Shown here: in pieces, positions 14,745 to 63,372 of the stretch
How the letters are laid out: every line of letters starts with the position of its first letter
How positions within the stretch are numbered: position 1 is the first letter of the stretch
DNA from: Alteromonas naphthalenivorans
GTDB taxonomy: Bacteria > Pseudomonadota > Gammaproteobacteria > Enterobacterales > Alteromonadaceae
DNA length: 64,000 bases
Reading direction: 5' to 3'
NCBI RefSeq assembly: GCF_000213655.1
Contig: NC_015554.1
Span: 4,650,001 to 4,714,000, forward strand
The notes under the pieces: model-generated
What the model was told of the DNA's origin: nothing
The model's database searches: none
Seen by the model: only the letters and a program-made list of their open reading frames with translations
Made by a program: the position numbers and the translations under genes

Positions 14745-14887
14745 TGGAATATCGTAAAAGAAGATTAAGGAAATGATGTGAAACTAACCGTGACACAAAA
14801 CGTACCACAGTTAGTTTCAAAGCGCTTGTAAGCCCTTGATTTATAAGGACCTAGAAAGCGGGGCGATTCTTACATCATGCCGCCCAT
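14745..14887. repeat. Imperfect repeat R2 ending in the 18-bp attachment sequence
   Basis: The counterpart of R1 (9385-9507). It would be the sequence directly downstream of groEL before the ICE inserted: reading the minus strand, the groEL end is followed here by GAATCGCCCCGCTTTC. Confidence 0.6.
14870..14887. repeat. Left attachment repeat
   Basis: TTACATCATGCCGCCCAT, identical to 63355-63372. Its reverse complement encodes M-G-G-M-M-stop, the end of groEL, so it is a displaced copy of the target. Confidence 0.85.
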
Positions 14888-14938
14888 ATGAAACATATCT
14901 TTTTGATATATTTAACTATTTTATAATGGGAAGTTATT

Positions 14939-14958
14939 GATACCCCTCATTATACCCT
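14939..14958. promoter_or_regulatory. Subterminal integrase arm-type site (left)
   Basis: GATACCCCTCATTATACCCT closely matches GATACCCCTCATAATACCCC at 63215-63234. It lies ~50 bp inside the left repeat. This placement is typical of integrase arm sites; binding is inferred. Confidence 0.5.
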
Positions 14959-15145
14959 GCATGACAACCGACACACGATGCAGCTGATTAAACTTGGTTT
15001 TTTGACACCATTCCGATAGATACGCGGCAATACAAGCCTACTGAGCAGCTTTTATTTCAGTAGTGTCGTTAAAGGCAAGTCGCTCACCCAGTGGGGGCAG
15101 AATAGAAAACTTTTCAGACACCCTGCACGGTTTTAAATTGCTGTT

Positions 15146-15186
15146 TCCATATTTGAGCATAGCATGAAGCTATACACAAATATGGA
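15146..15186 (+). promoter_or_regulatory. Hairpin over the alpA ribosome binding site
   Basis: A perfect 10-bp inverted repeat, TCCATATTTG (15146-15155) / CAAATATGGA (15177-15186), encloses a small inner stem (TAGC/GCTA, 15160-15163 and 15169-15172). The right arm contains the GGA of the alpA ribosome binding site, so in RNA it could block translation. As DNA it could be a dimeric regulator operator. Confidence 0.5.
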
Positions 15187-15194
15187 GATTCGAT

Positions 15195-15377
15195 ATGAGT
15201 GTCAAAATTGTTCGCATGAAAGAAGTCCAGCGGATAACTGGGCTGTCTCGATCAACAATCTATGCGCAAATTGCCAAAGGCCAATTCCCAAAGCAGGTAA
15301 AGCTCACCGGAGCACGTTCAGTGGGCTGGCATGAGGCCGCTATTATTGAATGGATTGAGGCAAGGCAACAGGCTTAG
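15195..15377 (+). CDS. alpA: AlpA-family transcriptional regulator
   Basis: 60 residues with the AlpA/MerR-like winged helix (RMKEVQRITGLSRSTIYAQI, then FPKQVKLTGARSVGWHEAAI). The family acts as small DNA-binding activators of integrase or excision genes in P4-like islands. The ATG is eight bases after GGAG. It lies 308 bp inside the left end, opposite the P4-type integrase at the right end; in the circular form the two would be neighbours, which fits a recombination-control role. tRNA-Leu follows 12 bp after the stop on the same strand. Confidence 0.88.
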   Translation: MSVKIVRMKEVQRITGLSRSTIYAQIAKGQFPKQVKLTGARSVGWHEAAIIEWIEARQQA

Positions 15378-15389
15378 CCCTTCTATCTT

Positions 15390-15476
15390 GCCAGAGCGAT
15401 AAAATTGGTAGACATGAGGGATTCAAAATCCCTTGCCCTCGCGGGCGTGCCGGTTCGAGTCCGGCCTCTGGTACCA
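15390..15476 (+). tRNA. tRNA-Leu (anticodon CAA)
   Basis: An 87-nt cloverleaf with encoded CCA. The acceptor GCCAGAG pairs with CTCTGGT (first pair G-U), discriminator A. The anticodon arm is GGGATT-CAA-AATCCC, a long class II variable arm follows (GCCCTCGCGGGC), and the T arm is GCCGG-TTCGAGT-CCGGC. It lies inside the ICE, 500 bp from the end, and is not the attachment site. The D arm is slightly atypical. It would read UUG codons. Confidence 0.9.
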
Positions 15477-15686
15477 CCTTCCCCCCTTTATAGACCCAAC
15501 AGATTTTTTTGACCGTTTTCGGCGTTGAACCTGATTGGGATGCAACTGGGATGCAAACCCAGGTAACTTTCAGTCACTTTCAATTCCGATAGCGTTGGCA
15601 GCTATGCTTCGCCGTCATAACGTTTGCTTGCTAAACAGTGGCTTTGTTAGGGGGAATGTTCAGGAATAGAGGGCAAGATGGATAGG

Positions 15687-18747: not shown

Positions 18748-19221
18748 TTATCCATTTGCGACCTGATGAGATCCGGACTGATCGTCAAAAACTCTGTCGT
18801 CTTCATAGACAAGTTCGTTATTGACTTTCAGCGTAAGGATGCGCGTCAGGAATCCACCAATCGCAGAACCCAACTCACCAGCACGTTCACCTTGTTTGTA
18901 GATGAATGCTTTGGCGCGAGGGTTGGCCATATTGAACCGGATCAACACTTTCGTATCGTCTGACTCGATGGCCTCCCGGTTTTCAAGAATGACACCGAGA
19001 GCGGTTTCTGCACCCACAATGAGATCATGATATTCATAATGCACATTGTCGGCAGGCCCCTGGATAACTGATACTTGAGCTGCATAGCGAGGAGGTTTAC
19101 CCTCTCCACTGATGTCACGGATAGCATTAAGATAGCCTATGCCATTCGCATACTCGTTAAAGTATCGGACTTCCTCTGCGGAGGCAGAGTTGGTTTTTTC
19201 ATTTTGGGTTGTTTTACTCAT
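18748..19221 (-). CDS. STY4534-family ICE replication protein (DUF3577)
   Basis: 157 residues fitting DUF3577/STY4534: YFNEYANGIGYLNAIRDI near the N-terminus, then RYAAQVSVIQGPADNVHYEY and a C-terminal LTRILTLKVNNELVYE. The family is annotated as an ICE replication protein and is predicted to have an OB-like single-strand-binding role. A strong ribosome binding site (TAGGAGAC) precedes the ATG. It ends at its own terminator. Confidence 0.85.
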   Translation of the reverse strand: MSKTTQNEKTNSASAEEVRYFNEYANGIGYLNAIRDISGEGKPPRYAAQVSVIQGPADNVHYEYHDLIVGAETALGVILENREAIESDDTKVLIRFNMANPRAKAFIYKQGERAGELGSAIGGFLTRILTLKVNNELVYEDDRVFDDQSGSHQVANG

Positions 19222-19374
19222 AGCAAGTCTCCTAAATCAATGAGTGAAAAAAGGAGTTGCTGACCCAGTGGGGCAACAAGCTCCCCGGTTGGGTGAGTGA
19301 ACAAGTTGATCTTTCAACACCTCAGTTGAGATAGCTGCATACCCTGAATTACACAGTGATCGTGGTATGGAGGT

Positions 19375-19394
19375 GCTATTGAGACAGCAATAGC
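19375..19394. ncRNA. Dispersed hairpin element, copy 1
   Basis: GCTATTG (19375-19381) / CAATAGC (19388-19394), loop AGACAG. The same hairpin recurs near 56065 and 57750. It lies in the 197-bp gap between the TraG stop and the STY4534-type gene. The upstream hairpin seen in the other copies is less clear here. Confidence 0.4.
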
Positions 19395-19418
19395 TACTGG
19401 TAAATATCGTTAGCTTTC

Positions 19419-20987
19419 TCATTTGGCACCTTTATTTTTGCCCGCAGACCGATTTCTAAAACTGGGCTTCCGCAGGCTGACATTTCCTGCCGCTGAAGTA
19501 CCGCGAGTCAATGCCTGAGTAGCCCCTTCCAACTGTGATGCAGCGCGAATTCCAGCAAGCCCGAGATATAAAGAAAGCAGGATGGGTAAAATCAAATATA
19601 AGCCGCCTGTTAGAAAGTTCAGGATAATCCGTTTCAGTGTGAGATCGGTGCTGAACAGTGTGGTGATGCTGCCAGGATCAGGATAAAAGGCTTGTATCAG
19701 GTTTTGATCGATCCACCAGGCAAAGAACCACAGCACCGTCCAAAACTTCACGGAGAACAAGATTAACGCTCCGATGATGAGCAAAGAAAACTTGTAACGA
19801 CTGATCAGAATAAAGAAAGGCAACAACGTATACAGCCCCATCAATACTAACGACTGAACCATGGGAGCGGCTTCCAAAAACACGCGCAGAAAAGCGGCAA
19901 AGGAAATGGACGCCTTACCAAGCCCATACACCGCCAAGCCTTGTTGCCCAGCATTCTGTACCGCAGCAAAAATACCGCTTTGTTCGCCAACTTCGAAGTC
20001 CACCAGATTACCGTAAGCAAAGTCATAGCCTCGTGTTGTCCAGCGCGGTGGCGAGTTAATCAGGGCGAGTTGCGTAATCACATCGCGCCGCTGCACCGCA
20101 TCCCAGCCGGGTTCTGCCGCTGCCGATTGCAGATCGATGTCACCAAGATCGTTCAAGACCGCTTGCTGAATACGAGGCCACCATTCATTGCAGTAAGGTT
20201 TACCGTAAACAGGATGGTTGCTGGCATCCCATTCCACATCTCTCAGTGCCGACCAGGGAAAACCTTCCCTGATTGAGTCTGACCGCAGGCTATCGTAATA
20301 CCCCGCAATATCCTGAAAAACATGAGAACCGATCCAGTCGGGGTCGGTATCGCCATAACGGTTTAGTATTGCATCAATCGCTGCACTGTCTGGTCGTTCA
20401 GTCAGATACTTTGAACGCGCTTCGATGAAACAGTCTCGAAAAAAGTCATTTATCTCGTGGCGTAGCTCCGGGTCTTTGATAGTGGCATCTCGCAACTCAT
20501 TGGCGTAGCCTCGGTAGTCCAATGTAGGTGGAACATCCTCCATCACCGCACGATTAAAACCGGAACTGAAGCTCATTACGGCAAACCAGAACACAGGCAC
20601 ATTAACGGTCACCGGCGCACCATTGAAAGAAATACCGCCACCATAGGTAGTGCGCGAATTGGCGACGGTCGCTACTGGCTGTGCTGGTGTGCCGATTACC
20701 GCCCTTGGCGTAAACGATAAATCAACGGCATTTAATGGCGTTGCCGGAACCGCAGCTATCAGAATTACGAAGAAGGCAATAAAAAACTCCACTTCGATAA
20801 TCCGTAAGGTAGTATTGCCTGCTTCTTCAGCGTCTTCTCCGGCATAGGATCGAATGATGGTATCAATCAGAATGCCCAGAAAAGGCAAAAAAACCATACC
20901 TGTCGCGACAAGTACATCCCAGATGCTGTTATAGAAAAACCAACCAAATAAGGTGGTGTAGAGTTCGAGTGTGCTATCCACAGCCAT
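19419..20987 (-). CDS. traG: Conjugal transfer TraG N-terminal domain protein
   Basis: 522 residues of the TraG_N type (mating-pair stabilisation/pilus assembly). The N-terminus has two hydrophobic segments (~13-40 and ~62-85), then a periplasmic domain of ~250 residues with RWTTRGYDFAYGNL. Three to four more helices lie at ~360-480 and the tail is basic. It is the last gene of the operon running from TIGR03757, with only 2 bp to the preceding gene. F-type TraG has a longer periplasmic C-terminus with surface-exclusion function that is absent here. Confidence 0.85.
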   Translation of the reverse strand: MAVDSTLELYTTLFGWFFYNSIWDVLVATGMVFLPFLGILIDTIIRSYAGEDAEEAGNTTLRIIEVEFFIAFFVILIAAVPATPLNAVDLSFTPRAVIGTPAQPVATVANSRTTYGGGISFNGAPVTVNVPVFWFAVMSFSSGFNRAVMEDVPPTLDYRGYANELRDATIKDPELRHEINDFFRDCFIEARSKYLTERPDSAAIDAILNRYGDTDPDWIGSHVFQDIAGYYDSLRSDSIREGFPWSALRDVEWDASNHPVYGKPYCNEWWPRIQQAVLNDLGDIDLQSAAAEPGWDAVQRRDVITQLALINSPPRWTTRGYDFAYGNLVDFEVGEQSGIFAAVQNAGQQGLAVYGLGKASISFAAFLRVFLEAAPMVQSLVLMGLYTLLPFFILISRYKFSLLIIGALILFSVKFWTVLWFFAWWIDQNLIQAFYPDPGSITTLFSTDLTLKRIILNFLTGGLYLILPILLSLYLGLAGIRAASQLEGATQALTRGTSAAGNVSLRKPSFRNRSAGKNKGAK

Positions 20988-20989
20988 AA

Positions 20990-21331
20990 CTATGCACTCC
21001 CCAAGCTCAATAGAGTCTGTAAAGGGTTCTGCACAATCAGCAACTCATAGAGAACAATCAGTATCACTAGAGGTAGTCGAGCTGGTTTTTGCCTTGCCTT
21101 TATCTTGAGCCTATTTAATAGGTGTTGAATCAAAAAAGGCCAAAGGCCAATCAACAGACAGTAAATCAGCAGTCGCCATCCCAGCCAGGCATGCCCATCA
21201 AATTGATGTGCAGGCAGCTGGTTTGAACTGACCAACAGACTCACAATCAACCCAGCCATAAACAGTACGACCAAGGCAATCAAGGTAAATAACCAGCGCC
21301 AACCCTGCTTATTTGAAACCGATCTCATCAT
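20990..21331 (-). CDS. Small ICE membrane protein
   Basis: 113 residues with three hydrophobic helices (~13-33, ~49-68, ~84-105). It overlaps the stop of the PFL_4711 gene (ATGATGA), so the two are translationally coupled. It occupies the position in this ICE class where a short unnamed membrane protein precedes TraG. No enzymatic motif. Confidence 0.65.
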   Translation of the reverse strand: MMRSVSNKQGWRWLFTLIALVVLFMAGLIVSLLVSSNQLPAHQFDGHAWLGWRLLIYCLLIGLWPFLIQHLLNRLKIKARQKPARLPLVILIVLYELLIVQNPLQTLLSLGSA

Positions 21332-22656
21332 GGCTCTACACCACCATTACTCAACGGACGGGGATCTTCAGGTGTAGAGGCAGGCGTGTTGAGCGATGAC
21401 TGACGCTCGGCATTGTCGCGCAACAACAATTCGACGACAGTTGAGGTTACAAACTTATTGCGCGCATCTTTTTCAAAGATGACATTTTGGATTTCTCCCT
21501 CTAATTCATCGAGGGCAATCTGCACTTCTTTCTGTGCAATTTTATTGGCAGCGATATATCCCTCTTTCCGGCCTGACAGTAATAACCGCCGTATAATCAT
21601 GGCTTCTTCCATCACCCTGGCTTCTGCGACTTCCTGAGCCAGCTTATGAACTACAATCGACCGTTCCTGTGCGGGGAGTTGACGAAGAGCGAGAATCACT
21701 TGCAGTGTGATAGCGACACCAGGAGCTTCTACCTCATTAAGGTGATCCCGCGTGGGACGTGTAGCACCCGCAATCAGGTTTACCAACAGCGGTAATATAT
21801 CTTCGGTAGTTTGTTCAATGTAAGGAATCAGCCCCTTGCCGGAGCGAGCGCCCTTAGAGCAGCCATCGCAGATGCCAATTTCCACCTCACCGAGTACATT
21901 ATTAACCCATTCATCAACTGCATTTGGCCCATCGAAGTGATCGGCCAATGGCGCTGAACTGGGTAAATTGGCTGTGGTTTCCGGCGGCCGTTGTGACAGG
22001 ATATTTAAGCCTGCAGTAGCCACATCGGTAAGTACACGAATCGGAGGCTGATCTTGCCCGCCTCGCCGTTGTCCTCCCACCCACTCAATGCCATCGTTAT
22101 GAGCGTCTTCTGCATCATCCACCGCGTCATGAATATTGGCGTTACCGACACCCAGTGAGCGCTTCCAAGAATCGCCCCAACTCACCGTTACCCATTCGGC
22201 ATAGGGGTTAGTGCCGTTAGAAATTTCATACTGAATGCGCTCACAGCTTTTGGTCGCTAGCGAGAAGGCTTCGTTAGCACGCAGCAGCGCATTCTGAAAC
22301 AGGTCATAAAGGCCGGGGTTAGCTTTTTGTAGTATGTAGCCTGGTAGATTCGCTATGGCCGCTGATGCCGCCAGTTCCAGCGCATTCACGGCGTTATCAA
22401 CACCATTTCTCAGATTGTCTAGCGAGTTCTCGATGGCCACCATCGGGTCGAACCCGCTACAGGTCAACGCGGTAGCAGATGCATTCAATGACAAATCTAT
22501 CGTTGTGATATTCAGGCTGGGAGGAATGGCAATATCCCGACCGCCGCCGATTTTGTAGTAAAACAGGCTGTCATCGTTAGGTGCTGGCTCAGCAAAGGAT
22601 AGTTGAGCGCTCACAACGAAAATGACCGAGATAAAATAGTATCGATTAAACCTCAT
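21328..22656 (-). CDS. ICE protein, PFL_4711 family (TIGR03755)
   Basis: 442 residues with signal peptide (cleavage near SFA-EP). The mature N-terminus has YKIGGGRDI and CSGFDPM; an Ala-rich helical region and a paired CDGCS motif (~245) follow. It matches PFL_4711/TIGR03755, resembling F-type TraH of the periplasmic/outer part of the mating apparatus. The ATG at 22656 overlaps the preceding stop (ATGA); a TTG two codons earlier is less likely. Confidence 0.88.
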   Translation of the reverse strand: MRFNRYYFISVIFVVSAQLSFAEPAPNDDSLFYYKIGGGRDIAIPPSLNITTIDLSLNASATALTCSGFDPMVAIENSLDNLRNGVDNAVNALELAASAAIANLPGYILQKANPGLYDLFQNALLRANEAFSLATKSCERIQYEISNGTNPYAEWVTVSWGDSWKRSLGVGNANIHDAVDDAEDAHNDGIEWVGGQRRGGQDQPPIRVLTDVATAGLNILSQRPPETTANLPSSAPLADHFDGPNAVDEWVNNVLGEVEIGICDGCSKGARSGKGLIPYIEQTTEDILPLLVNLIAGATRPTRDHLNEVEAPGVAITLQVILALRQLPAQERSIVVHKLAQEVAEARVMEEAMIIRRLLLSGRKEGYIAANKIAQKEVQIALDELEGEIQNVIFEKDARNKFVTSTVVELLLRDNAERQSSLNTPASTPEDPRPLSNGGVEP

Positions 22657-23666
22657 ATGCAAATCTCCAGTGGCACAGTAAACAAATAAGCGCCTTGCGC
22701 TTCACAGCACTGGTAAGGTCGCCATAGAGAAAAGGCATATCGGTTATCATGGGCAATACGGCCAGACGACCAAGCCTGTCGGTACACATCGTTTTCGCCG
22801 AAGACATAGCACTGTGTGTCCATCTTCGGTGCCAACATTTGCCAGACACCTGTATCGGGATCGTTTTCTATCAGCTCTCCAGGCAGCCAGGTTTTGTTGT
22901 AGTCATTACCATCCAGTGCGGTATAAACATGGGGTTGTCGCGTTTGCGTAACGATGTTTCCTGCTCGTTGTGCTATCACAGCCGAAGCCTTGGTATCGTC
23001 CTTCTGATTGATGAAGCCTGTGCGCGGCCATACAGCACCCCATTGCTGCTGAATACCAGAACCGACAACGCGACGGCCAGGTATCAAATTATGTATGTAG
23101 AGCAATTCAGGGATACCCAAGCGCCACGTCAACGCATCCAGAGAAGATGACAGGTACGGTTGAAACGACTCGGCCTCTGACGGACAGTAATAACCACTAT
23201 CCCCGATGAAATCAGTGATAGAACTAAATGGGTGACCAATTGCTGTAACTTCTTTGAATCGTAAGCTGTGATCCGTGGCCGTATTTCCTCCCTCAACACG
23301 ATGGCCACCACCAGCTTCTGCACCATGAAACAGCGCTACAATAGAATCAGTTAATTGGCGCTCGATATCACCATAGATAGATTCGGCTTCCTCCCATGGA
23401 TTGTCACCGGGTTTATCAAAGACACTAACGACCAAATCAGGGTTGTAGTGACGAACACGAATGCTGGTTTCTATCGAGCACTCGTAGATACTGCAACGCA
23501 ACCAGACGCACACGCCTGTGATGCAGTAGTTCAGGCAAGAACGGTCGAGTGTCATTGACTGCGTAATATCGCTCAATGTTAGTCTTGTGGGTTCGGCTTC
23601 AAATGCTCGAACCGGGTTGCTGAGAACCGCTAATAAAGATAAGACAATGACAGGCAACCTATTCAT
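22653..23666 (-). CDS. ICE protein, TIGR03756 family (TraU-like)
   Basis: 337 residues with signal peptide (cleavage near VRA-FE). Paired cysteines (CLNYCITGVCVWLRC, ~42-56) resemble TraU, and further Cys residues occur at ~170, ~280 and at QCCEAQ near the end. Fits TIGR03756. It is periplasmic and probably disulfide-bonded. It overlaps the upstream TIGR03757 gene by 8 bp. Confidence 0.88.
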   Translation of the reverse strand: MNRLPVIVLSLLAVLSNPVRAFEAEPTRLTLSDITQSMTLDRSCLNYCITGVCVWLRCSIYECSIETSIRVRHYNPDLVVSVFDKPGDNPWEEAESIYGDIERQLTDSIVALFHGAEAGGGHRVEGGNTATDHSLRFKEVTAIGHPFSSITDFIGDSGYYCPSEAESFQPYLSSSLDALTWRLGIPELLYIHNLIPGRRVVGSGIQQQWGAVWPRTGFINQKDDTKASAVIAQRAGNIVTQTRQPHVYTALDGNDYNKTWLPGELIENDPDTGVWQMLAPKMDTQCYVFGENDVYRQAWSSGRIAHDNRYAFSLWRPYQCCEAQGAYLFTVPLEICI

Positions 23667-24126
23667 GGACAGTTACCTCGCCGGAACTTAAACGCCACTG
23701 GCGATATTTTTCGAGGGCCTGAGATAAATCGGTCAGCCCATAAACCACTACTTGCTCATCAAAGATAACTGCCGGGTAACGATCTAGGCGATAGGCCATA
23801 GCAGCGCCCACCGCTTGGTAGGCATTGCGTAGCTCAGATTCAAGCTGGGCTTTACCGATGGCTTCAACGCGCCGTTGAAATTCAGCCTTTGCCAGTTCTT
23901 CATTGGCTGGCAGCTCCTCGCTTAAACGTCTTTCTACCTGGGAAACACTGTCCAAGTTTAATTGCGTTACTTTGGGGATATAGCTCTTGAAGGCATCCGG
24001 TGTAGCCACCGGATATTTATCAGAAGTAACGACCAACACTGACTCAGGCCACAGACTTGATGCAGCCTGTACTCCCGCACAAGCAAAGCCCATTATAATG
24101 GCGAATATTACTAACCTAGCTCGCAT
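23659..24126 (-). CDS. ICE protein, TIGR03757 family (TrbC/TraW-like)
   Basis: 155 residues from the ATG at 24126, which begins a normal signal peptide (MRARLVIFAIIMGFACAG). An ATG at 24168 would add 14 residues but has no better ribosome site. The mature part has SVLVVTSDKYPV, a helical middle, and YPAVIFDEQVVVYGLTDL, the TIGR03757 thioredoxin-like pattern related to TrbC/TraW. First gene of the operon ending in traG. Confidence 0.8.
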   Translation of the reverse strand: MRARLVIFAIIMGFACAGVQAASSLWPESVLVVTSDKYPVATPDAFKSYIPKVTQLNLDSVSQVERRLSEELPANEELAKAEFQRRVEAIGKAQLESELRNAYQAVGAAMAYRLDRYPAVIFDEQVVVYGLTDLSQALEKYRQWRLSSGEVTVHE

Positions 24127-24291
24127 AGCCACTTGCAGCGATCTCCAATGTGTTGATGGCTCAATCATCGGAGTTTTTAAGTGGTGTTAATACGGAAAAC
24201 CGTTCAGATAAAAAAGTAAGTTTTGAAATAATTCAGATGAGAGAACAGCAGTAGTAGTAATCCCCGTTCAAACACAACAAGGAAAATATTC

Positions 24292-25203
24292 ATGGTCGAA
24301 TCTAGCTCAGACAACCCTCAGAGCATATTAACCCGTATAGCTAAAATCATCGGACTGATAGCAATAATCAGTAGTATTTTTGGTGTGTCCTATCAAAAAG
24401 GCATGATCATCAAAATGCAACTGGGAAACCTAAACGGAAATTATGATGTAAGAGAAGTAATCAATTCGGCAATCTTTGGTTATCTTGAACTCTTTGACAA
24501 AGTATCTAAGATCCAAATAGTCGATTTCATGTCAGCCAATTGGTTAGTATCTATTGGACTGTTTATGGTAATCGGATTGGTTGTCCCTTACGGATACAGA
24601 AAACGACATAATCTGGACGAATTCAGGGAAACCATAAAGCAGCGACTTAGATATTTTTTTGATAGAGTGGCAGGATCATATATATGGTCACCTCTTGCGG
24701 GCGCTATGATAGGTTTCTTCGCCAATCTTGTCCTATCCCTCATTTCTTATACGGTCTTAATGCTTACGGGATTATTACTACTACCCGCTCTAATTGGCTA
24801 TTTGCTAGGTGGCGGTAAAATTGACACCATTATGGACAACCCTCCGTGCAAAGCTATTACAGAGGGAATATCAGAACATAAATATATTCGCCAGTGTACT
24901 CAACTAAAAATGAATGGTGAAACCGTCATGGGAGATATTCTTCTCGAAACAAATGACGCTTACTTTCTGCACCTAAACAAGTCATTCCTTTATATAAAGA
25001 AGGATGGAAAAGTCTGTATTTCCTCCAAATTTGAGTTTACTGAGGAGATAAAAGATATCGAAAGTTTTGAGTTCGAGAGAGATCAAACCGACCATTTATG
25101 TAATGAAATAGAAATGACGACAAATCAGCCTAACGAGACTTCGCAAGAGCATCAGCTACCGCAAAAGCCGCCTCTAACTCCGAACAGTGCTGGGCCTTCA
25201 TAA
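24292..25203 (+). CDS. Cargo membrane protein of unknown function
   Basis: 303 residues, opposite in strand to its conjugation neighbours. Hydrophobic segments: ~16-36, ~85-102, ~137-185 (two passes). A soluble C-terminal domain (~200-275) has beta-strand pattern (MNGETVMGDILLETNDAYFL, then KDGKVCISSKFEF). The last ~70 bases overlap the 3' end of the TraC-like ATPase gene in convergence, so its final ~23 residues (from QPNETSQEHQ) read antisense to that gene. This suggests the inserted gene lost its own stop. AAGGAAAA precedes the ATG. Confidence 0.6.
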   Translation: MVESSSDNPQSILTRIAKIIGLIAIISSIFGVSYQKGMIIKMQLGNLNGNYDVREVINSAIFGYLELFDKVSKIQIVDFMSANWLVSIGLFMVIGLVVPYGYRKRHNLDEFRETIKQRLRYFFDRVAGSYIWSPLAGAMIGFFANLVLSLISYTVLMLTGLLLLPALIGYLLGGGKIDTIMDNPPCKAITEGISEHKYIRQCTQLKMNGETVMGDILLETNDAYFLHLNKSFLYIKKDGKVCISSKFEFTEEIKDIESFEFERDQTDHLCNEIEMTTNQPNETSQEHQLPQKPPLTPNSAGPS

Positions 25204-27835: not shown

Positions 27836-27838
27836 AAA

Positions 27839-28195
27839 TCACTCCCGCCCTGTATATTCGCCCGGCGCGGCAATATGATCCTGGGTATACAGCTTGAAGA
27901 ACGTGGTATAGCCCGGTACTGGATGACCTGCACCACTCAAATGGGGAAACACATACATGGTTAATGTTGGATTTGGTAGCCACTGAAAAGCCGAATCGGT
28001 TGCAGGAGTCGTTATCTGTACTTCGCGCTCTGGGCTGGGTATTGGCGCGGAATTTTCCCGCTGAAACTTGCTGTCGTGGATCGCTTTCATGCTCGGCATG
28101 TCTTTACCAAACACACGGCTTTTGGAACTGGCACAGCCGCTAATAAATATCGCACTAATCAAGATCAGTGTGAGCGTGCGTAGACTCTTGTGCAT
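27839..28195 (-). CDS. Conjugal transfer lipoprotein, TIGR03751 family
   Basis: 118 residues with a lipobox (IFISGCAS, Cys at ~20), KSRVFGKDMPSMKAIHDSKF and a C-terminal FPHLSGAGHPVPGYTTFFKL. It corresponds to the TraV-like small outer-membrane lipoprotein of the mating pore. The ATG at 28195 is used because a ribosome site (AGGAG) and the signal peptide start there; it overlaps the TIGR03752 gene by 41 bp. Confidence 0.85.
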   Translation of the reverse strand: MHKSLRTLTLILISAIFISGCASSKSRVFGKDMPSMKAIHDSKFQRENSAPIPSPEREVQITTPATDSAFQWLPNPTLTMYVFPHLSGAGHPVPGYTTFFKLYTQDHIAAPGEYTGRE

Positions 28196-49995: not shown

Positions 49996-50724
49996 CTAAA
50001 AGTATTTTTTTAGCCGCTCAAAACTAATCCGCACCACCAACCCAAGCAGCAATGCAAAAGGTAAAAGCACGAGCGCAGGATTAATACTCAATGGCAAGCT
50101 GATATAGATCACGCAAGCCCCAACAAAAGCTGGCACTACAGATCGTTTAGCGAGGTTAAAGACGTTACTGCTTTCTCTTCCTCCACCCCAGCGCCTTAGG
50201 TCTCGCTCAACCAGACCATCAACAGCTCCGATAAGACCAGCCAGAACAAAAACCGGCAGCGAAAACACAATCAATGCTAGACGGACGACAAAGGTTTGCG
50301 CGACGGTGCTTGCAGCTTCAAGGTAGGGCTTTGCTTTTCGGTAGTATTTGCTGCTCCATTCGCTAACGGTACTCACAGTGCTACTTGATTTCGGATTAAA
50401 GCGAGGTGAATGTCTTTTGAATGCTGTTTGCTTCTCAATCCATTTTACAGCGCTTTTCGCATTTTCTGCGACTGCGCGCTTGGCATTGAGCGAGTTCTGG
50501 TAGAGCTGGGTATTGAGATAGCCTTGGTCACTGGTGAGTACCGCTTTCGCATGATCGGCACCCTGTTCTGGCCAAAACCAGATCATGCCAATCCATTCAA
50601 TGATAACGGAAATCAGCAAACTCAGAATTAACCAGACAATCAGCGCTACTGTGCTGGATATAGTTTTACCGATCAGGCTAGGTTCTTTGCGCGGTGGTGG
50701 TCGATATTCAGATGAGTTAGCCAT
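49996..50724 (-). CDS. ICE membrane protein, TIGR03747 family
   Basis: 242 residues with membrane helices at ~23-48, ~145-170 and ~195-230, matching TIGR03747 (LAGLIGAVDGLVERDLRRWG is a typical block). The ATG at 50724 follows GAGG; a TTG at 50733 is the alternative. It lies 5 bp after traD. Normally adjacent to RAQPRD; the cargo inserted between them. Confidence 0.87.
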   Translation of the reverse strand: MANSSEYRPPPRKEPSLIGKTISSTVALIVWLILSLLISVIIEWIGMIWFWPEQGADHAKAVLTSDQGYLNTQLYQNSLNAKRAVAENAKSAVKWIEKQTAFKRHSPRFNPKSSSTVSTVSEWSSKYYRKAKPYLEAASTVAQTFVVRLALIVFSLPVFVLAGLIGAVDGLVERDLRRWGGGRESSNVFNLAKRSVVPAFVGACVIYISLPLSINPALVLLPFALLLGLVVRISFERLKKYF

Positions 50725-50729
50725 GCGCC

Positions 50730-52787: not shown

Positions 52788-53278
52788 TGCTCCCAGCCAT
52801 CCTTCGAGATCAGTACCGGGTAATGCTTCAACGCCAACGGCTTGGCAAAACTCTCAGCGGATGCAGGTATTAATCGCAAACCTGTGGCCAGGGCTTGCAT
52901 CGCCTGAATATCTTTCAATGTATCGGCCTGTATCAATAAGCCTACGGCATTGAGTTTTACGAGCTGGCTGTGCTTTGCTTCCAACCAAGCCCTTGATCGA
53001 GTATCGGTGCCGACGAGAAATAGCGGTTGTTGCAGATATTTGAGTGGCTTGGCGGTTACTTTGACAAACCCAGGTGACATTGACGGGGTTTCGATGGGTA
53101 GTTGAAAAGCTTTATTTGCCGAAGAGGGTTTAGGTGGCTTCGGCTGAGGCCCTGACCGTTTCGGTAAGTACGGTGCGATAGGCGAAGTGTTGCCCGAATC
53201 GTAGATAACAATTAACGGACTACCGGCCTGAGCCATTGGCATATAGCTTAAGCAGAATATGAGTATAACCCGCTTCAT
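52784..53278 (-). CDS. ICE protein, PFL_4695 family (TIGR03765)
   Basis: 164 residues with signal peptide (cleavage near AQA-GS), a proline-rich linker (RSGPQPKPPKPSS) and a C-terminal domain (FLVGTDTRSRAWLEAKHSQL, LKHYPVLISKDGWEQ). Fits TIGR03765. The ATG at 53278 overlaps the transglycosylase stop (ATGA). Confidence 0.87.
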   Translation of the reverse strand: MKRVILIFCLSYMPMAQAGSPLIVIYDSGNTSPIAPYLPKRSGPQPKPPKPSSANKAFQLPIETPSMSPGFVKVTAKPLKYLQQPLFLVGTDTRSRAWLEAKHSQLVKLNAVGLLIQADTLKDIQAMQALATGLRLIPASAESFAKPLALKHYPVLISKDGWEQ

Positions 53279-53814
53279 CAAAATGCCCCTCGCCATAGTC
53301 GCTTTACGCGCTGGCGATAGTTTTCCGCGCTATCCAAAGACTCGCTATCCTGTCCTGGATCGTGGTATCGACCTACGGCCTGCCACCAATCACCGCTGAC
53401 CTCAAATTGTTCGCGCAAAATGGCCGCCCCTGCTTTCAGGTTCAGCATGGGAACGAGCGCATCATCGACATGGCTAAAGCGCTGCTGATGCCAGCGCCAA
53501 TTCACTTGGGTTAGCCCTATATCAACCAATTGCTTACGGTTGATTGCTTCTGCCGCCAAGATAATCGCTTCGCTTTGTGACTCACAAAAAATACTCCGAC
53601 CTTCAACATTCAGTGTCCACGGCCAGGGCAACAGCACGCCTTTATAAGATCGCCCACTTTCCGCCAAAGCAACGGCATACAAAATATCGGCGGGCACATT
53701 GGCGGCTTTGGCAACCACTACATAGGCTATAGGTAAGTCATCCAGAGCGGCCACGGAAATGGATTGCATCAGGGTCGCGCCCACCACTAACTTTCGAATT
53801 GCGCATTTACTCAT
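53278..53814 (-). CDS. Lytic transglycosylase, SLT domain
   Basis: 178 residues with signal peptide (cleavage near VAA-LD). The lysozyme-like fold has catalytic Glu in ALAESGR (~52), DIGLTQVNWRWHQQ (~107) and NLKAGAAILREQ. It opens peptidoglycan for the mating pore, like VirB1. Coupled by ATGA overlaps on both sides. Confidence 0.9.
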   Translation of the reverse strand: MSKCAIRKLVVGATLMQSISVAALDDLPIAYVVVAKAANVPADILYAVALAESGRSYKGVLLPWPWTLNVEGRSIFCESQSEAIILAAEAINRKQLVDIGLTQVNWRWHQQRFSHVDDALVPMLNLKAGAAILREQFEVSGDWWQAVGRYHDPGQDSESLDSAENYRQRVKRLWRGAF

Positions 53815-54629
53815 AGCCCCAAATCCTCTGCCCTTAGCTGGAAGAACTGACCATTGCGTTTCAGATAAATCGGAATGTCAGCACTGGTGTTGTTTGAAGA
53901 CCGGTTTTGCAGGCGCTGCCAGAGACCTTCATCACGATTCAGGGTTAGCACATTGTCGCCAAGCTGTTTTGCATGAATCTGGTGAGCCTGAGCCCAGGCC
54001 CGAACTGCGTCATCGTCGGATGCGTTGCGAACATACACGTCGATACCGGCATTTCGGGTTCCTGAGACCAGGCTCATTAAGCGGGGAATCATGGAAGAAC
54101 ATTGACCGCAACGCGATGGCACAAACACCATTACGCGATCACCGTCTTGAAACTGTTTCTTCGCCAGCCAGCGCGCAGCTTTGGTTGATTCCTTTTTCTG
54201 TTCGTGTAATCGATACGGAGCAAGCAGACGCTGATCGACAGTATCCACGTTCGGATACAAACGCTGGAAAGCGTCGCGATAGGCCTGCTGAAAACGCAGT
54301 GTACGTTCGGTCAGTTCAAATTCCTGCCGGGCGTACAACTCGGCATAGCGCTGTTGCTGGGCAGGAGTTTCTGGAAACATGCCCAACGCCAGTAAAGGGT
54401 CTATCGTCGGGCTCCAAACACCCAATGGCCCCCGCATCAATTCTTTATAGCGCTGATACTCTTTTACTTCGAGTGACCAATATCCTGCCAGTGTTTTAGT
54501 GTCGGGCGTTTGCTCGGCAGGGGTATGAGTAACTTGGGTTTCCGATTTGTCAGGGATGCTCATTGGCTCAGCCGCTTTAGCTACACTGGATATGACGACT
54601 AAGACTAAGCTCATAGTGATAGCTTTCAT
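53811..54629 (-). CDS. ICE protein, TIGR03759 family (thioredoxin-like)
   Basis: 272 residues with signal peptide (cleavage near AKA-AE). Helical middle (LRFQQAYRDAFQRLYPNVDT) and a thioredoxin-like C-terminal part with CGQC (~170) and SADIPIYLKRNG. Fits TIGR03759. Possibly a disulfide handler for Cys-rich pore proteins such as the TraU-like one (inference). ATG at 54629 overlaps the PilL stop. Confidence 0.87.
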   Translation of the reverse strand: MKAITMSLVLVVISSVAKAAEPMSIPDKSETQVTHTPAEQTPDTKTLAGYWSLEVKEYQRYKELMRGPLGVWSPTIDPLLALGMFPETPAQQQRYAELYARQEFELTERTLRFQQAYRDAFQRLYPNVDTVDQRLLAPYRLHEQKKESTKAARWLAKKQFQDGDRVMVFVPSRCGQCSSMIPRLMSLVSGTRNAGIDVYVRNASDDDAVRAWAQAHQIHAKQLGDNVLTLNRDEGLWQRLQNRSSNNTSADIPIYLKRNGQFFQLRAEDLGL

Positions 54630-55441
54630 GGCTGCACCTGCTCCAACCAAAGGCGGTAATGCTCATCCACCAAGCGGCTAGCCTCGACAGGTGATAAAGG
54701 CTTATCGTTAGATAGAGGGATATTCAGATATGCACCAATGACTAGATGATTCATATTCTCGTTGGCGAAGGCATTGGGGTTTGCGCGAAAAGCCTGAACC
54801 AACTGCTGATCCATTGTGAAATCAGTCATGCCGAGTTGAAGGACAATATCACTTAAAGTATCGCCTGATTTGATCGGGCCATACACCAGTACCTTATTGG
54901 ATAAGGGTTCTATCAGCTTACCTACAGATGTAGCCTGTGCGCCTTCTACCCAAGCAGCTCTTGCGTCATTCAAATTTTCTTCGCTGACATAATCTTGAAG
55001 TCCGGGCTTTAGGCGATAGCGCACCGTACGCAACACCGGATTAATAACAACCTCATAACTATCACCGCCCAATACCTCAAGGGCATCATAAAGTGAAATC
55101 GGATCAAACGTTCGATGCGGTTCTGGAAGTGGCCGGGTTAGTAGCACATAAAAATCTAACGATTCTTCATCGTCAGTTTTATCGTCGAGTTGGTAACCAT
55201 AAGGCTTGAGCAGATACTGAATTGCTGAACCAACGGTCGTCACCTGTTCAGGAACAATCAATCTGAGAACAGATTCCATCACATCCAATTGCGATTCAGT
55301 CGGCCCTATCCACTGCGCAACATAGCGGCTTTCTTTCACCTTGCCATGCAAAGCAACATCTGTGGCATCCATGGCCTGCAATGGCGGCGCTAAAAATATA
55401 AGACTGAGCACTGAGGCTGGAATAACGTTGACTACTGGCAT
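54626..55441 (-). CDS. pilL: PilL-like ICE protein, PFGI-1 class (TIGR03748)
   Basis: 271 residues with signal peptide. The domain RYVAQWIGPTESQLDVMESV, TTVGSAIQYLLKPYGYQL (~65-85) is the secretin-N/STN-like PilL N-domain; VYGPIKSGDTLSDIVLQLG (~187) is LysM-like. It would contribute to a conjugation-associated type IV pilus, but no other pil genes are present. TTGGAG leads into the ATG at 55441. First gene of the operon running to TIGR03747. Confidence 0.83.
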   Translation of the reverse strand: MPVVNVIPASVLSLIFLAPPLQAMDATDVALHGKVKESRYVAQWIGPTESQLDVMESVLRLIVPEQVTTVGSAIQYLLKPYGYQLDDKTDDEESLDFYVLLTRPLPEPHRTFDPISLYDALEVLGGDSYEVVINPVLRTVRYRLKPGLQDYVSEENLNDARAAWVEGAQATSVGKLIEPLSNKVLVYGPIKSGDTLSDIVLQLGMTDFTMDQQLVQAFRANPNAFANENMNHLVIGAYLNIPLSNDKPLSPVEASRLVDEHYRLWLEQVQP

Positions 55442-55554
55442 AAACCACTCCAATCAATCTGTAGAACGAGACTTAGGTTACGAATGTGATAAATGGAATT
55501 GCAGTGAAAACCTTTCAAAGCTAAAAGAAAGAAAAAAACGGGAGATAAAAATGA

Positions 55555-59172: not shown

Positions 59173-61017
59173 ATGATTACTAATATTCCTTTTCAACAGC
59201 TCTCTATTTCCCCTAAAAATGTCCGTCAAGTAACAACCACTAAAGCTGCCGATCAACAGCTAATTGCCAGCATTCGTAGCCAAGGTGTGTTGCAAAACCT
59301 TGTCGTAGAGCCCGTGGGTAACGATCAATTTCAGGTTATAGCCGGTGGCCGTCGCTTTGCAGCAGTCGGGCATTTGATTGATGGTGAAGAACTGGATAGC
59401 GATTTTCTGATTCCGTGCTTAGTAAAAAGTAATACGGATGAACACATAGAAATTTCGTTAGCGGAAAATACGCAGCGGGAGGCAATGCACCCTGCCGACC
59501 GTTTTTTGGCATATAAAGCATTGGCCGATCAGGGTTACAGTGAAGAAGATATTGCCGCGCGATTTGGGGTGGCCATTCAGTCGGTACGCAAACTGCTGGC
59601 ACTGTCGAAAGTTTCACCCAAACTTTTGGATTATTTCCGTAAAGGCAAGCTGTCGCTGGAATGTCTGATGGCGTTTACCGTCCATCCAGATCACAAAAAG
59701 CAATTAGCCTGTTATAAAGACCTGTCGCAACGCCACATTTACCCCAATGCAGTACGCAGTTGGTTATTGGATGAATCCGTATCAACGGCGAGCAGTATCG
59801 GTGCCTTTGTTGGCAAGGCCGCTTACCTGAAAGCCGGTGGCGCAGTTTCTACGGATTTGTTTGAAAATCATACCTACCTCAATGACCACGCAATGGTTCA
59901 CCAACTCGCTGAACAGAAGCTGACGCGCCAAGCCAATAAACTCAAAAAGCAGGAAGCGTGGTCATGGGTAGATATATCGCTCTTAGGTACATCGGCTGCC
60001 AGTGAATTTGTGCAATTGAAGCCACAACTGACGGATGTGCCGCAATCGCTATCCAACCAAATTAAGCAGCTCACCAAACAAGCTGAGCAACTGGAAGAAC
60101 AGTGCATTGCCGAGGGCTGGCCGGAAACACTAGAACAGAAATTTGAAATCGTTGAAAAGGCACTAGATGAGGCTATTGAAGTGCGCGACCAAGACTACCT
60201 GCGATTTAGTGACGAACAAATGAGCTATGCAGGGTGTATCGTGACCTTTGATTACCACGGCAAATTAACCATCATCCGTGGGCTGGCCTTGAAAAAAGAT
60301 GTGCAGCGGCACCAGCGCCAAGCGCAAGCAGTTGATACCACAACAGAGACAACAGACAAAACCGCAGCCACTTACTCCCAAGCCCTACTAAATGACCTCG
60401 CGGCTCATCGCCAGCAAATCACCAAGGCGTGTTTGTTAAAACATCCGAATGTGGCCTTAGACATTCTGCACTACTCACTTTGTGTGCAAGTATTATCCGG
60501 GCGCTACCATCGATGCCATCAACTGATTGATGCCCACTTTAATGAAGTAGTGAGCGAATCCAGCCGTGACGATCTTAATGGAACTCCTGCCGATGCTGCC
60601 TTAAATAACTTCCAGAAAAAATTGCCTCTCGCTTGGCTGGATGAAGCCGATGAAGGAAAACGCCTAATCACTTTCATGGAATTATCGGCATCAGAAAAGA
60701 AACGGTTGATTACCTATTGCGTGGCCGCTACGCTGAGCATCAATAACCGAGGCACACATCACGACCAAGATGCTTTGGTCGATCATTTACAGATTGATTT
60801 TGCGAAACACTGGCGACCCAGCAAAGACAACTTCCTGAATAGGCAAGACAAAGGTTTGCTGCTGAATACTTTTAGCACTTACCGTAACGAAGATTGGACG
60901 AATCAGCACACCGCCGCCAAGAAAAGTATTGTTGTAGAAGATATAGCCAATTGGTTTGGAGAAAAGTCGGCGCAAGACGACAGCGTACAAAAAACGTGGC
61001 TGCCTGATACCTTTTAA
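59173..61017 (+). CDS. parB: ParB/Spo0J-family partition protein
   Basis: 614 residues, long for the family. The N-terminal ParB domain (~1-100) has IRSQGVLQNLVVEP, and the arginine motif SLAENTQREAMHPADR lies at ~95. The HTH follows (YSEEDIAARFGVAIQSVRKL, ~117-136). The long C-terminal part (~200-600) is helical and not recognised. No ParA ATPase gene accompanies it, so it may act in regulation, replication or centromere binding rather than classical partition. It ends at a terminator. Confidence 0.85.
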   Translation: MITNIPFQQLSISPKNVRQVTTTKAADQQLIASIRSQGVLQNLVVEPVGNDQFQVIAGGRRFAAVGHLIDGEELDSDFLIPCLVKSNTDEHIEISLAENTQREAMHPADRFLAYKALADQGYSEEDIAARFGVAIQSVRKLLALSKVSPKLLDYFRKGKLSLECLMAFTVHPDHKKQLACYKDLSQRHIYPNAVRSWLLDESVSTASSIGAFVGKAAYLKAGGAVSTDLFENHTYLNDHAMVHQLAEQKLTRQANKLKKQEAWSWVDISLLGTSAASEFVQLKPQLTDVPQSLSNQIKQLTKQAEQLEEQCIAEGWPETLEQKFEIVEKALDEAIEVRDQDYLRFSDEQMSYAGCIVTFDYHGKLTIIRGLALKKDVQRHQRQAQAVDTTTETTDKTAATYSQALLNDLAAHRQQITKACLLKHPNVALDILHYSLCVQVLSGRYHRCHQLIDAHFNEVVSESSRDDLNGTPADAALNNFQKKLPLAWLDEADEGKRLITFMELSASEKKRLITYCVAATLSINNRGTHHDQDALVDHLQIDFAKHWRPSKDNFLNRQDKGLLLNTFSTYRNEDWTNQHTAAKKSIVVEDIANWFGEKSAQDDSVQKTWLPDTF

Positions 61018-61713: not shown

Positions 61714-61721
61714 CACCACGA

Positions 61722-61750
61722 ATAGTACCATTTTTGGTACAATCTGTCAA
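61722..61750 (-). promoter_or_regulatory. higBA promoter and operator
   Basis: On the minus strand: TTGACA (complement of 61745-61750), 17 bp, TACTAT (complement of 61722-61727). Within it is an inverted repeat, GTACCA (61725-61730) / TGGTAC (61735-61740), placed to let a repressor block RNA polymerase. The likely start of transcription falls within a few bases of the higB ATG. Confidence 0.75.
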
Positions 61751-61897
61751 GCATAGCCTATCCCTCGGATTACTGTGTATAGGTGACCCAGCTAGAGCCG
61801 ATTCATTCCCCAATCTTATCCAGCCACCACTTTATATATACGGTTTACTTATTTATCGCACTGAAAGGTTTACCGCGGCAGCGCGACAATGTGGTTG

Positions 61898-63127
61898 CTA
61901 GGGTTCCCCTCTCGTAGTTGGTAAAACATCATCCCTATCACGCAGAGCATCCAACTGATCAGCCCAAGCCTGCATCATCTTGGTACGCTCTGCTAAGTAC
62001 ATTGAGCGATTATAAGCCCTTGAAGTAGCTGTACCTGTAAGGTGGGCTAGCTGGGTTTCAATCACATCATGGTGCCACCCCTGCTCATGTAAAATCGTCG
62101 ATGCCGTGCTCCTGAAGCCGTGTGCGGACATTACATCAGCACCATAACCAAGATCCCGCAAACGATTGGTCATCACATTCTTACTTATAGGCTGATCACT
62201 ATTACGCTGACTGGGGAATACATACGGCGAATAGCTGGTTACTTCATAAACATTTTTAAGCTGAGTCACTACTTGTTCGGCAAGCGGTACAAGGTGTTCT
62301 CGGCCACGCTTCATTTCTTCACCAGGTATTGTCAGCAGCATATTGTCAAAATCGATGTATTCCCATTTAAGGCATCTAATTTCCCCAGGTCTCAAGAATA
62401 ACCGGGGAATAAGCCTTAACGCTTCTACAGTACAAAAGCTGCCAGATTCAGTTGTATCAATATCCCGAATAAGCTGCCCTAAGGCCAAAGGCTTTGTGAT
62501 AGCCGCTCTGTGCTTAACTTTTGGCATAGGCTTGAGAATATCACTCATAGGTAAGCCCTGAGCAGGATTGATACGGGTATATCTGTGTGCCAAGGCATAA
62601 CCAAAGATACGATTGATCACTGAAAGGATTGTGGGGGCTACACGGCGCTTACCCGCCGCCTCGATAGACAGCATTAGCTCTGTGATATGCCCTTGATCAA
62701 TCATATCTATCTGTAGCTTTGATAATGGAGCCATATCAACCGTTATCCAGCGCTTAACCTTATTGGTGTGGTCTTCCGACCAGCTAGACTTCTGCTGCTT
62801 CCACCAAGTCAACGCAAGCTCGCCAAATTGGCGGCCATCAGCTTTAGATTCCCTCTTTTTAGCCCGTCTTTCATCAGCAGGGTTAATCCCCTGAACCAGC
62901 TGGGCTCGTGCTTGGGCAGCCATTGATCTCGCCTCAACTAGGGGTATCGTAGGGTACTGCCCCAGAGCCAACTCTTGATGCTTATTATTAAACCGATAAC
63001 GCATACGCCAAAGCTTGGAACCATTGCTTTTTATCAATAAAAACAAACCATTACCATCACTTTTCTTTGTCTGTTTCTTGCCTTCAGGACAGATAGAGTT
63101 CTTAACTTCCAACGCTGTTAAAGCCAT
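61898..63127 (-). CDS. int: P4-type tyrosine integrase of the ICE
   Basis: 409 residues. An N-terminal arm-binding domain (DUF4102-like: KKSDGNGLFLLIKSNGSKLW, ~20-40) is followed by the core-binding part and the catalytic domain. Catalytic residues: Arg in FLRPGEIRCLKWE (~248), HGFRSTAS (~345), and the Tyr in ATSRAYNRSMYLAER (~378-384). A good ribosome site (GAGGTGAGAT) precedes the ATG. The gene starts 228 bp from the right attachment repeat and reads away from groEL, as expected for the enzyme that inserted the element there. Confidence 0.93.
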   Translation of the reverse strand: MALTALEVKNSICPEGKKQTKKSDGNGLFLLIKSNGSKLWRMRYRFNNKHQELALGQYPTIPLVEARSMAAQARAQLVQGINPADERRAKKRESKADGRQFGELALTWWKQQKSSWSEDHTNKVKRWITVDMAPLSKLQIDMIDQGHITELMLSIEAAGKRRVAPTILSVINRIFGYALAHRYTRINPAQGLPMSDILKPMPKVKHRAAITKPLALGQLIRDIDTTESGSFCTVEALRLIPRLFLRPGEIRCLKWEYIDFDNMLLTIPGEEMKRGREHLVPLAEQVVTQLKNVYEVTSYSPYVFPSQRNSDQPISKNVMTNRLRDLGYGADVMSAHGFRSTASTILHEQGWHHDVIETQLAHLTGTATSRAYNRSMYLAERTKMMQAWADQLDALRDRDDVLPTTRGEP

Positions 63128-63214
63128 ATCTCACCTCAATGTGGGTGCAAGTAGGGGTATGATGCAGGGTATCAGCTACGATAATACCCTAAATTTCAGA
63201 CAATTACATATGAC

Positions 63215-63235
63215 GATACCCCTCATAATACCCCT
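63215..63235. promoter_or_regulatory. Subterminal integrase arm-type site (right)
   Basis: GATACCCCTCATAATACCCC, matching the left site at 14939-14958. Nearby 63157-63175 carries GGGGTATGATGCAGGGTAT, an inverted variant of the same ATACCC motif. Binding by the integrase is inferred. Confidence 0.5.
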
Positions 63236-63293
63236 AAAATCTTCAGGATTGTGTGCGATACCAGTAGACCTTATGAGACAAGAAGGCATAAAA

Positions 63294-63324
63294 AAAGCCC
63301 GTAAACCAAAGGTTTACGGGCTTT
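63294..63324 (-). terminator. Terminator serving groEL
   Basis: A perfect 14-bp stem, AAAGCCCGTAAACC / GGTTTACGGGCTTT, loop AAA, followed on the minus strand by a T-run. It lies inside the element end, so the element seems to bring a terminator for its target gene. Confidence 0.88.
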
Positions 63325-63354
63325 ATAGGACTTAATGAGACTAAGTCATGACGT

Positions 63355-63372
63355 TTACATCATGCCGCCCAT
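63355..63372. repeat. Right attachment repeat within groEL 3' end
   Basis: Identical to 14870-14887; it comprises the last five codons and stop of groEL. Confidence 0.85.

What the first reader, a model, noticed from the sequence alone, without database searches (positions are those of the whole stretch)
14870..63372. ICE inserted at the 3' end of groEL, with exact 18-bp repeats that restore the coding end
TTACATCATGCCGCCCAT occurs at 14870-14887 and 63355-63372, and its reverse complement is the final codons and stop of groEL. Related GATACCCCTCAT motifs lie just inside both ends, and the P4-type integrase sits next to groEL. P4-type integrases usually use tRNA ends; a protein-coding essential chaperone gene as target is unusual. 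The element also places a strong terminator right after groEL.
Basis: partly seen in the sequence, partly recalled or inferred. Interest (0 to 1): 0.7.

Follow-up and report, generated by a model that had tools for sequence, protein, structure and literature searches.

The report
Mobile elements that dock at groEL
A 48-kb mobile DNA element has slotted itself into the last codons of the essential chaperone gene groEL without damaging it, and the close relatives of its integrase that were found, mostly in marine bacteria, all sit at this same spot and bring their own transcription stop signal.

Summary
The 18-bp repeats are exact, are the only two copies in the genome, and bound a 48,485-bp insertion. 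Of 58 congeners, 55 have one copy of the 17-bp core and 3 none; in six congeners flank sequence lies directly against groEL. Cause: a tyrosine integrase (61898-63127). All 30 genomes found with a close integrase (48-100% identical; Gamma- and Zetaproteobacteria) have it 197-461 bp after groEL; 0 of 71 more distant relatives (31-41%) do, and 57 of those have a tRNA gene there. The groEL-sited integrases form one group (SH-aLRT 100). In 7 of 19 named genomes a second core lies 6.9-48.9 kb downstream on the same contig. A 7.3-kb circular contig carries what reads as the excised junction. The terminator after groEL is a fixed element part (31 of 31, versus 8 of 71). Corrections: the ICE label is only partly earned (T4SS and coupling protein, but no MOBH relaxase match in the genome), and groEL 3' ends are already a reported target of staphylococcal phage satellites, also with an 18-bp overlap (PMC8125051). 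So: a new, broad family of a known kind.

The parts
63355..64000 (-). 3' part of groEL (runs off the window), ending in [10 protein letters not shown]
   Evidence: translation; congener GroEL
63355..63372 (-). att core copy that ends groEL (ATGGGCGGCATGATGTAA)
14870..14887 (-). distal att core copy, 48,485 bp away
14506..14869 (.). displaced native 3' flank of groEL; in six congeners flank of this kind lies directly against groEL (full block in G012, G019, G009; shorter parts in G005, G006, G001)
63294..63324 (-). element-borne intrinsic terminator just after groEL; fixed part of this integrase family
63130..63250 (.). GGGGTAT/ATACCCC repeats between terminator and integrase, presumed arm-type sites (includes GATACCCCTCAT 63215-63226)
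14929..14960 (.). matching GGGTAT/GGGGTAT pair near the distal end (includes GATACCCCTCAT 14939-14950)
61898..63127 (-). groEL-site tyrosine integrase, 409 aa
15195..15377 (+). AlpA-type regulator, possible excision factor (role recalled for the family)
   Evidence: Pfam PF05930
15390..15473 (+). tRNA-like gene carried by the element
   Evidence: Rfam RF00005 40.5 bits; not found by ARAGORN
18748..32442 (-). PFGI-1-class conjugation genes (TraG_N, TIGR03755, 03756, 03757, TraC TIGR03744, 03752, DUF3438, DUF2895, 03750, 03745, RAQPRD)
49996..55453 (-). DUF4400, TraD coupling protein (TIGR03754), DUF2859, SLT transglycosylase, TIGR03759, PilL2
59173..61017 (+). ParB-family protein
32550..37295 (+). 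QatABCD anti-phage defence cargo
   Evidence: PADLOC models QatA, QatB, QatC, QatD
40619..46275 (.). RND-type efflux cargo (outer membrane factor, HlyD-type adaptor, AcrB-type pump)

Best explanation
The window holds a 48.5-kb integrative element placed at the groEL 3' end by its own tyrosine integrase. The integrase recombines a core carried by the element with the matching last ~17 bp of groEL, (A)TGGGYGGYATGATGTAR, so that groEL keeps an intact end (partly supplied by the element) and the native downstream region is pushed to the far end. Shown by sequence: paired cores, empty sites in relatives, one group of integrases all found at groEL, and a circular contig of a relative with a single core. 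The element then brings a strong terminator some 30-45 nt after the groEL stop, followed in about half of the family by a sigma-70-like promoter, then GGGGTAT repeats and the integrase gene. Inferred: the repeats are arm-type integrase sites; the terminator replaces the displaced native one and shields the integrase from groESL transcription; the strong conservation of the GGM-tail codons gives the family its wide host range, as tRNA genes do for its relatives.
For: Core copies: own genome 2, 55 of 58 congeners 1, 3 none. Empty sites in six congeners (G012, G019, G009, G005, G006, G001); in G012 and G019 the flank and groEL matches overlap by exactly 18 bp. Integrase just after groEL in 30 of 30 genomes at 48% identity or more, 0 of 71 checked more distant loci (31-41%) with groEL in the 1500 nt upstream. 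One group in trees of 63 and 45 rows, SH-aLRT 100 (quick method). Second same-strand core downstream on one contig in 7 of 19 named genomes (6.9-48.9 kb; repeats of 17-19 bp, 50 bp in G077 where a relic of the same kind follows). In G075 and G083 both copies share the same synonymous variant; in G092 groEL ends TAG while the distal copy is TAA, so the element supplies the last base. Circular 7,333-bp contig with one core and no groEL. Terminator in 31 of 31 including the circle (30; the miss is L061, seen) versus 8 of 71; the first 11 stem pairs are intact in all 21 hairpins of 27 nt given, with both-sided changes at pairs 5, 7 and 11.
Against: No excision or transfer was measured in this strain. 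The circular contig is from a relative and could also arise from tandem copies. In 5 of 19 named genomes no second exact core was seen (G080, G087, G090, G091, G093) and in G081 the second hit does not look like an att junction; G081, G090 and G093 lie on long contigs, so there the element is decayed, its far core diverged, or the model incomplete. The terminator is not exclusive to groEL sites: two tRNA-Glu-sited relatives (L185, L186; 40% identical) carry a very similar one, so it may predate groEL targeting. A promoter at the fixed place scores 9 or more of 12 in 13 of 28 and not in the window's own element. The Zetaproteobacterial element G089 lacks GGGGTAY near its ends and has GGTGCAA-like repeats instead.
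Confidence: 0.93

Rival explanations
1. The element is a full, self-transmissible ICE of the PFGI-1/SXT-like kind that happens to use groEL.
For: TraC (TIGR03744), TraD (TIGR03754), TIGR03745, 03750, 03752, 03755-03757, 03759 and PilL2 models match over their cut-offs.
Against: No match to the MOBH relaxase PF07514 or the PFGI-1 relaxase TIGR03760 in the whole genome; no relaxase domain in the element's reading frames that were scanned with Pfam. Seven other groEL elements share no other protein with it at E 1e-8.
Confidence: 0.3
2. The repeats are an old duplication or assembly artefact, not recombination products.
For: The C-terminal GGM codons are repetitive, and a degenerate copy of the groEL flank exists at 9385-9507.
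Against: Single copy in 55 of 58 congeners, empty sites, the same architecture in 7 other genomes with different content, and a circular form.
Confidence: 0.02
3. The insertion was guided by the tRNA-like gene near the distal end and groEL adjacency is secondary.
For: An Rfam tRNA hit lies at 15390-15473 and most distant relatives have a tRNA gene upstream (57 of 71).
Against: The tRNA lies about 500 bp inside the repeat and away from the integrase; the repeats lie at groEL; none of the 30 groEL-sited loci has a tRNA within 400 nt upstream of the integrase.
Confidence: 0.02

Closest known systems
Staphylococcal PICIs such as SeCISE48 (PMC8125051; passages read)
   [quoted passage not shown] several species; transfer shown there by transduction.
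   Different: Bacillota phage satellites with their own integrase/excisionase type; here ICE-like, mobilisable and small islands of Gamma- and Zetaproteobacteria. Integrase kinship was not tested (no staphylococcal sequence compared).
dusA-specific integrase family (Farrugia 2015, PMC4482086; abstract start and passages seen)
   Same: One integrase family, one protein-coding target, very different cargo with only the integrase shared.
   Different: Target is the 5' end of dusA; here the 3' end of groEL with an element-borne terminator.
P4/CP4-type integrases at tRNA genes (the 71 distant loci)
   Same: Detected as relatives over most of the protein; same geometry, target gene upstream of the integrase. 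The P4 label is recalled.
   Different: 31-41% identical; 57 of 71 have a tRNA gene within 400 nt; terminator usually absent (8 of 71 have one).
PFGI-1 class ICEs
   Same: T4SS, TraD and PilL2 models match.
   Different: Relaxase not found; target groEL.
Mycobacteriophage Bxb1 in groEL1 (title in a reference list seen; details recalled)
   Same: groEL-type gene as attB.
   Different: Serine integrase; inserts within the gene (recalled).
Group II introns near the groEL end in Azotobacter (PMC4465626, passage read)
   Same: Also exploit the groEL 3' end.
   Different: Retroelement; no integrase.

Membership tests
Site-specific integrative element with tyrosine integrase | Flanking direct repeats that equal the target sequence | tested here: met
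Site-specific integrative element with tyrosine integrase | Empty site in relatives | tested here: met
Site-specific integrative element with tyrosine integrase | Integrase domain with the conserved catalytic residues | tested here: met
   PF00589; R246, H336, R339, H362, Y372 invariant in 30 sequences; their role is recalled
Site-specific integrative element with tyrosine integrase | Excised circle with a single att core | tested here: inconclusive
   seen for a relative (80% identical integrase), not for this strain
groEL-site integrase family (proposed here) | Close integrase always next to groEL, one group in a tree | tested here: met
   30 of 30 genomes
PFGI-1 class ICE | T4SS genes and coupling protein | tested here: met
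PFGI-1 class ICE | MOBH relaxase (TraI) | tested here: not met
   no match in the whole genome
PFGI-1 class ICE | Conjugative transfer | not testable with these tools
   needs mating assay
Staphylococcal PICI at groEL | att in the last 18 bp of groEL | tested here: met
Staphylococcal PICI at groEL | Phage-satellite genes (packaging interference, pac, helper control) | not tested
   element proteins were not searched for PICI genes; its content is conjugative
Staphylococcal PICI at groEL | Integrase homology | not tested
   no staphylococcal integrase was compared

The most novel reading that the evidence does not exclude
A horizontally traded docking cassette (groEL core, terminator, integrase promoter, arm sites, integrase) has been taken up by unrelated conjugative, mobilisable and small elements across Gamma- and Zetaproteobacteria; and, because the integrase gene lies just behind the heat-shock groESL operon with one terminator between, stress-driven read-through past that terminator tunes excision, so the elements sense host stress through their docking site.
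Probability: 0.12. Interest if true: 0.75.

Novelty: new variant of a known kind. Interest (0 to 1): 0.52.

Why it matters
groEL is essential and very conserved, so an integrase that uses its last codons can enter many hosts while leaving the gene intact. A family found only at this site, with a circular form visible in a metagenome, gives a set of integrase/attB pairs for marine bacteria, a defined hotspot where defence and efflux cargo can be looked for, and a clean contrast with tRNA-sited relatives for asking how an integrase changes its target and why the terminator is kept. It also parallels the staphylococcal islands at the same gene end.

Tried and rejected
Tried without result: search of own genome for a MOBH relaxase; phage records for a close integrase (all 433 records under 60% identity); viral contigs (12 loci, one close; 6 loci, the same close one). 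A first terminator alignment was misplaced for one row and dropped. In one search the motif ATGATGTGA mis-hit in L038; its true groEL stop is. The 50-bp repeat in G077 first looked like a longer core; the extra part is the start of another element's terminator region. The idea that the terminator is an adaptation to groEL alone was weakened by L185/L186 at tRNA-Glu.

Rows left out before counts: distant loci were given and L171 (no upstream sequence) dropped, leaving 71; loci L019-L021, L159, L161, L163-L166, L168 and L173-L175 were not given. L149-L151, L179, L182 and L184 repeat genomes already counted (L026, L030, L032, L023, L036, L038). The covariation table used 21 hairpins of exactly 27 nt, some identical to each other; hairpins of other length were left out, and pair 12 does not pair in 8 of the 21. 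Of the 19 named genomes, 13 have two core hits: 7 pairs on one contig, 5 on two contigs (G076, G078, G079, G086, G088; G088's pair shares only 8 bp because of one synonymous difference) and G081, whose second hit did not look like an att junction; in G085 the single hit is a candidate far core (its groEL end does not fit the pattern); in 5 only the groEL copy was seen.

Literature: eight searches bear on the question and gave no report that I recognised of proteobacterial elements at the groEL 3' end; most of their hits were seen as listings only. Searches were on group II introns and Bxb1. The library lacks most subscription papers, and the TIGER paper I tried is not held.
Full report
Observation. 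The two 18-bp copies are exact and unique in window and genome. Read on the minus strand they are ATG GGC GGC ATG ATG TAA, the end of groEL. They are 48,485 bp apart in the same orientation. The inner GATACCCCTCAT pair is real, though two such matches (up to one mismatch) also arose in 1 of 100 shuffles.

Is it an insertion? Forty genomes (this one and 39 relatives) were searched with the outer flank; 8 of the 39 relatives had a match. In six of them (G012, G019, G009, G005, G006, G001) matching flank lies directly against the groEL stop: the full 380-bp block in the first three, shorter parts in the others (only about 40 bp of flank in G001). In G012 and G019 the flank and groEL matches overlap by exactly 18 bp. 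In a seventh, G023, flank and groEL are separated by a 3-kb group II intron. In the eighth, G018, only 98 bp of the flank match, and they lie some 200 kb from its groEL core, so the flank is not everywhere beside groEL. In the genus the 17-bp core TGGGYGGYATGATGTAR occurs once in 55 of 58 other genomes, not at all in 3, and twice only here.

What put it there? The integrase 61898-63127 has an arm-binding, a central and a catalytic domain. From an alignment of 30 relatives the named-genome scan gave 80 loci, the best of 394. Each of the 20 at 48% identity or more has groEL upstream: 19 by tblastn and L025 by eye, its contig starting in the groEL end. Three further searches of sampled genomes, this one included each time, gave 10 of 394 (order), 4 of 369 (class) and 8 of 398 (phylum) at E 1e-90 or better. 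All were beside groEL except two in the phylum sample (L185, L186; 40% identity), which have a tRNA-Glu there. Removing repeats, 30 distinct genomes carry the arrangement, the integrase starting 197-237 bp after the groEL stop in 29 and 461 bp in L061. Of 71 more distant loci (31-41% identical) none has groEL in the 1500 nt upstream and 57 have a tRNA gene within 400 nt. The groEL-sited integrases lie on one side of one branch with SH-aLRT 100 (63 rows; 45 rows). These are quick trees, with some long rows (L061, L157). The window's integrase groups with Spongiibacteraceae and unclassified gammaproteobacterial ones and not with those of other members of its own family (L152, L157), which fits horizontal movement.

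Do the others have the same ends? In the genomes of 19 named loci a 15-bp core pattern was searched. Seven have a second same-strand copy downstream on the same contig: unclassified Gammaproteobacterium G075 7.6 kb, Zetaproteobacterium G089 6.9 kb, Shewanella G084 10.0 kb, Psychrosphaera G092 16.4 kb, Agarivorans G077 16.8 kb, Psychromonas G083 19.0 kb, Colwellia G082 48.9 kb. Five more have a candidate on another contig (G076, G078, G079, G086, G088), G085 has a candidate far core only, G081's second hit does not look like an att junction, and in five (G080, G087, G090, G091, G093) no second copy was seen. G081, G090 and G093 are on long contigs, so there the far end has decayed or diverged, or my model misses something. 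Exact repeats are 17-19 bp on one contig, apart from the 50 bp of G077. In G084, G078 and G076 the first base differs; in G092 the last base differs, groEL ending TAG and the distal copy TAA. The exchange thus lies inside TGGGYGGYATGATGTA and in G092 the element supplies the last base. After the distal core of G077, G083, G079 and G086 another terminator of the element type follows, in G086 with integrase fragments: the site seems to collect elements one after another.

Is it mobile? IMG/VR contig L170 has a 103-bp exact terminal repeat (7,333-bp circle), one core, no groEL, the terminator and an integrase 80% identical, and resembles the G075 element. It reads as an excised circle; tandem copies in a chromosome remain possible.

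The terminator. Behind the groEL stop the element carries a hairpin with a T run in 20 of 20 loci examined, at 32-43 nt; with later loci 31 of 31, the circle included (30; the one missed there is L061, whose spacer is longer than the 400 nt looked at; it was seen). In the 21 hairpins of exactly 27 nt the first 11 pairs are never broken, and pairs 5, 7 and 11 change on both sides; the innermost, pair 12, fails in 8. Among the 71 distant loci 8 have a hairpin that passes the same test, including the two tRNA-Glu ones, whose sequence is close to that of the groEL family; so it may predate, or have been exchanged with, the groEL branch. Other terminators now lie behind the distal core, apparently native in L125 and L130; that in L132 may be a relic. 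A promoter-like pair with 18-bp spacing sits at one fixed place after the T run in 13 of 28, but not in the window's element. I infer insulation of the integrase from groESL; stress-coupled read-through is only a possibility.

Arm sites. GGGGTAY occurs in the two terminal 250-bp stretches at 3+1 (window), 2+2, 3+1, 2+1, 0+2 and 2+1 copies in six of seven elements measured, against 0.03-0.11 per 250 bp inside; the seventh, G089, has none and shows GGTGCAA-like repeats at both ends by eye.

What the element is. It has many PFGI-1-class conjugation genes, ParB, AlpA, QatABCD and an RND pump. No MOBH or PFGI-1 relaxase was found in the genome. Against seven other elements (one of them, G083, only in part) only the integrase region matched at E 1e-8. 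Agarivorans G077 has a TrwC relaxase and TrwB coupling protein, Psychrosphaera G092 a TrwB-type coupling protein and a type I restriction enzyme, Colwellia G082 a T4SS coupling protein (only the larger reading frames were scanned). The docking module is thus shared and the rest is not.

Known work. Staphylococcal islands at the groEL 3' end with an 18-bp overlap are in print (PMC8125051, passages read; islands downstream of groEL also in PMC10094739, passages read). The dusA family is the nearest model of one integrase family on one protein gene (PMC4482086, passages). Eight searches showed me nothing on proteobacterial elements at groEL. I therefore call it a new variant of a known kind: a new groEL-site family with a fixed terminator, of untested relation to the staphylococcal one, and not a new principle.

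Noticed in passing
window 9385-14505: A degenerate copy of the groEL 3' flank with core remnant (9385-9507, 77%) and an integrase fragment (9985-10407) outside the element suggest an older, decayed insertion; how the flank itself came to be duplicated is unexplained.
   Followed up: partly
L105 15895-18923 (congener G023): A group II intron with maturase sits inside the groEL stop codon (TA^A, placed by eye), a second unrelated kind of mobile element at the same spot, as reported near the groEL end in Azotobacter.
   Followed up: partly
window 15390-15473: tRNA-like gene (Leu, CAA anticodon by eye) inside the element next to AlpA; host sequences 83% and 76% alike elsewhere in the genome; ARAGORN does not call it.
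   Followed up: partly
window 32550-38782: QatABCD defence operon followed by a patatin-like phospholipase with weak similarity to defence effectors.
   Followed up: no
window 14532-14599: Part of the groEL flank recurs elsewhere in congeners (L013, L014) and five congener matches begin within a base of 14506, so this block may itself be a repeat-family end.
   Followed up: no
window 56275-57141: A second integrase-like gene (Phage_int_SAM_2, Integrase_1) inside the element; role unknown.
   Followed up: no
L185, L186: tRNA-Glu-sited integrases 40% identical share a terminator very like that of the groEL family, hinting at common descent or exchange of leader and integrase between target classes.
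   Followed up: partly
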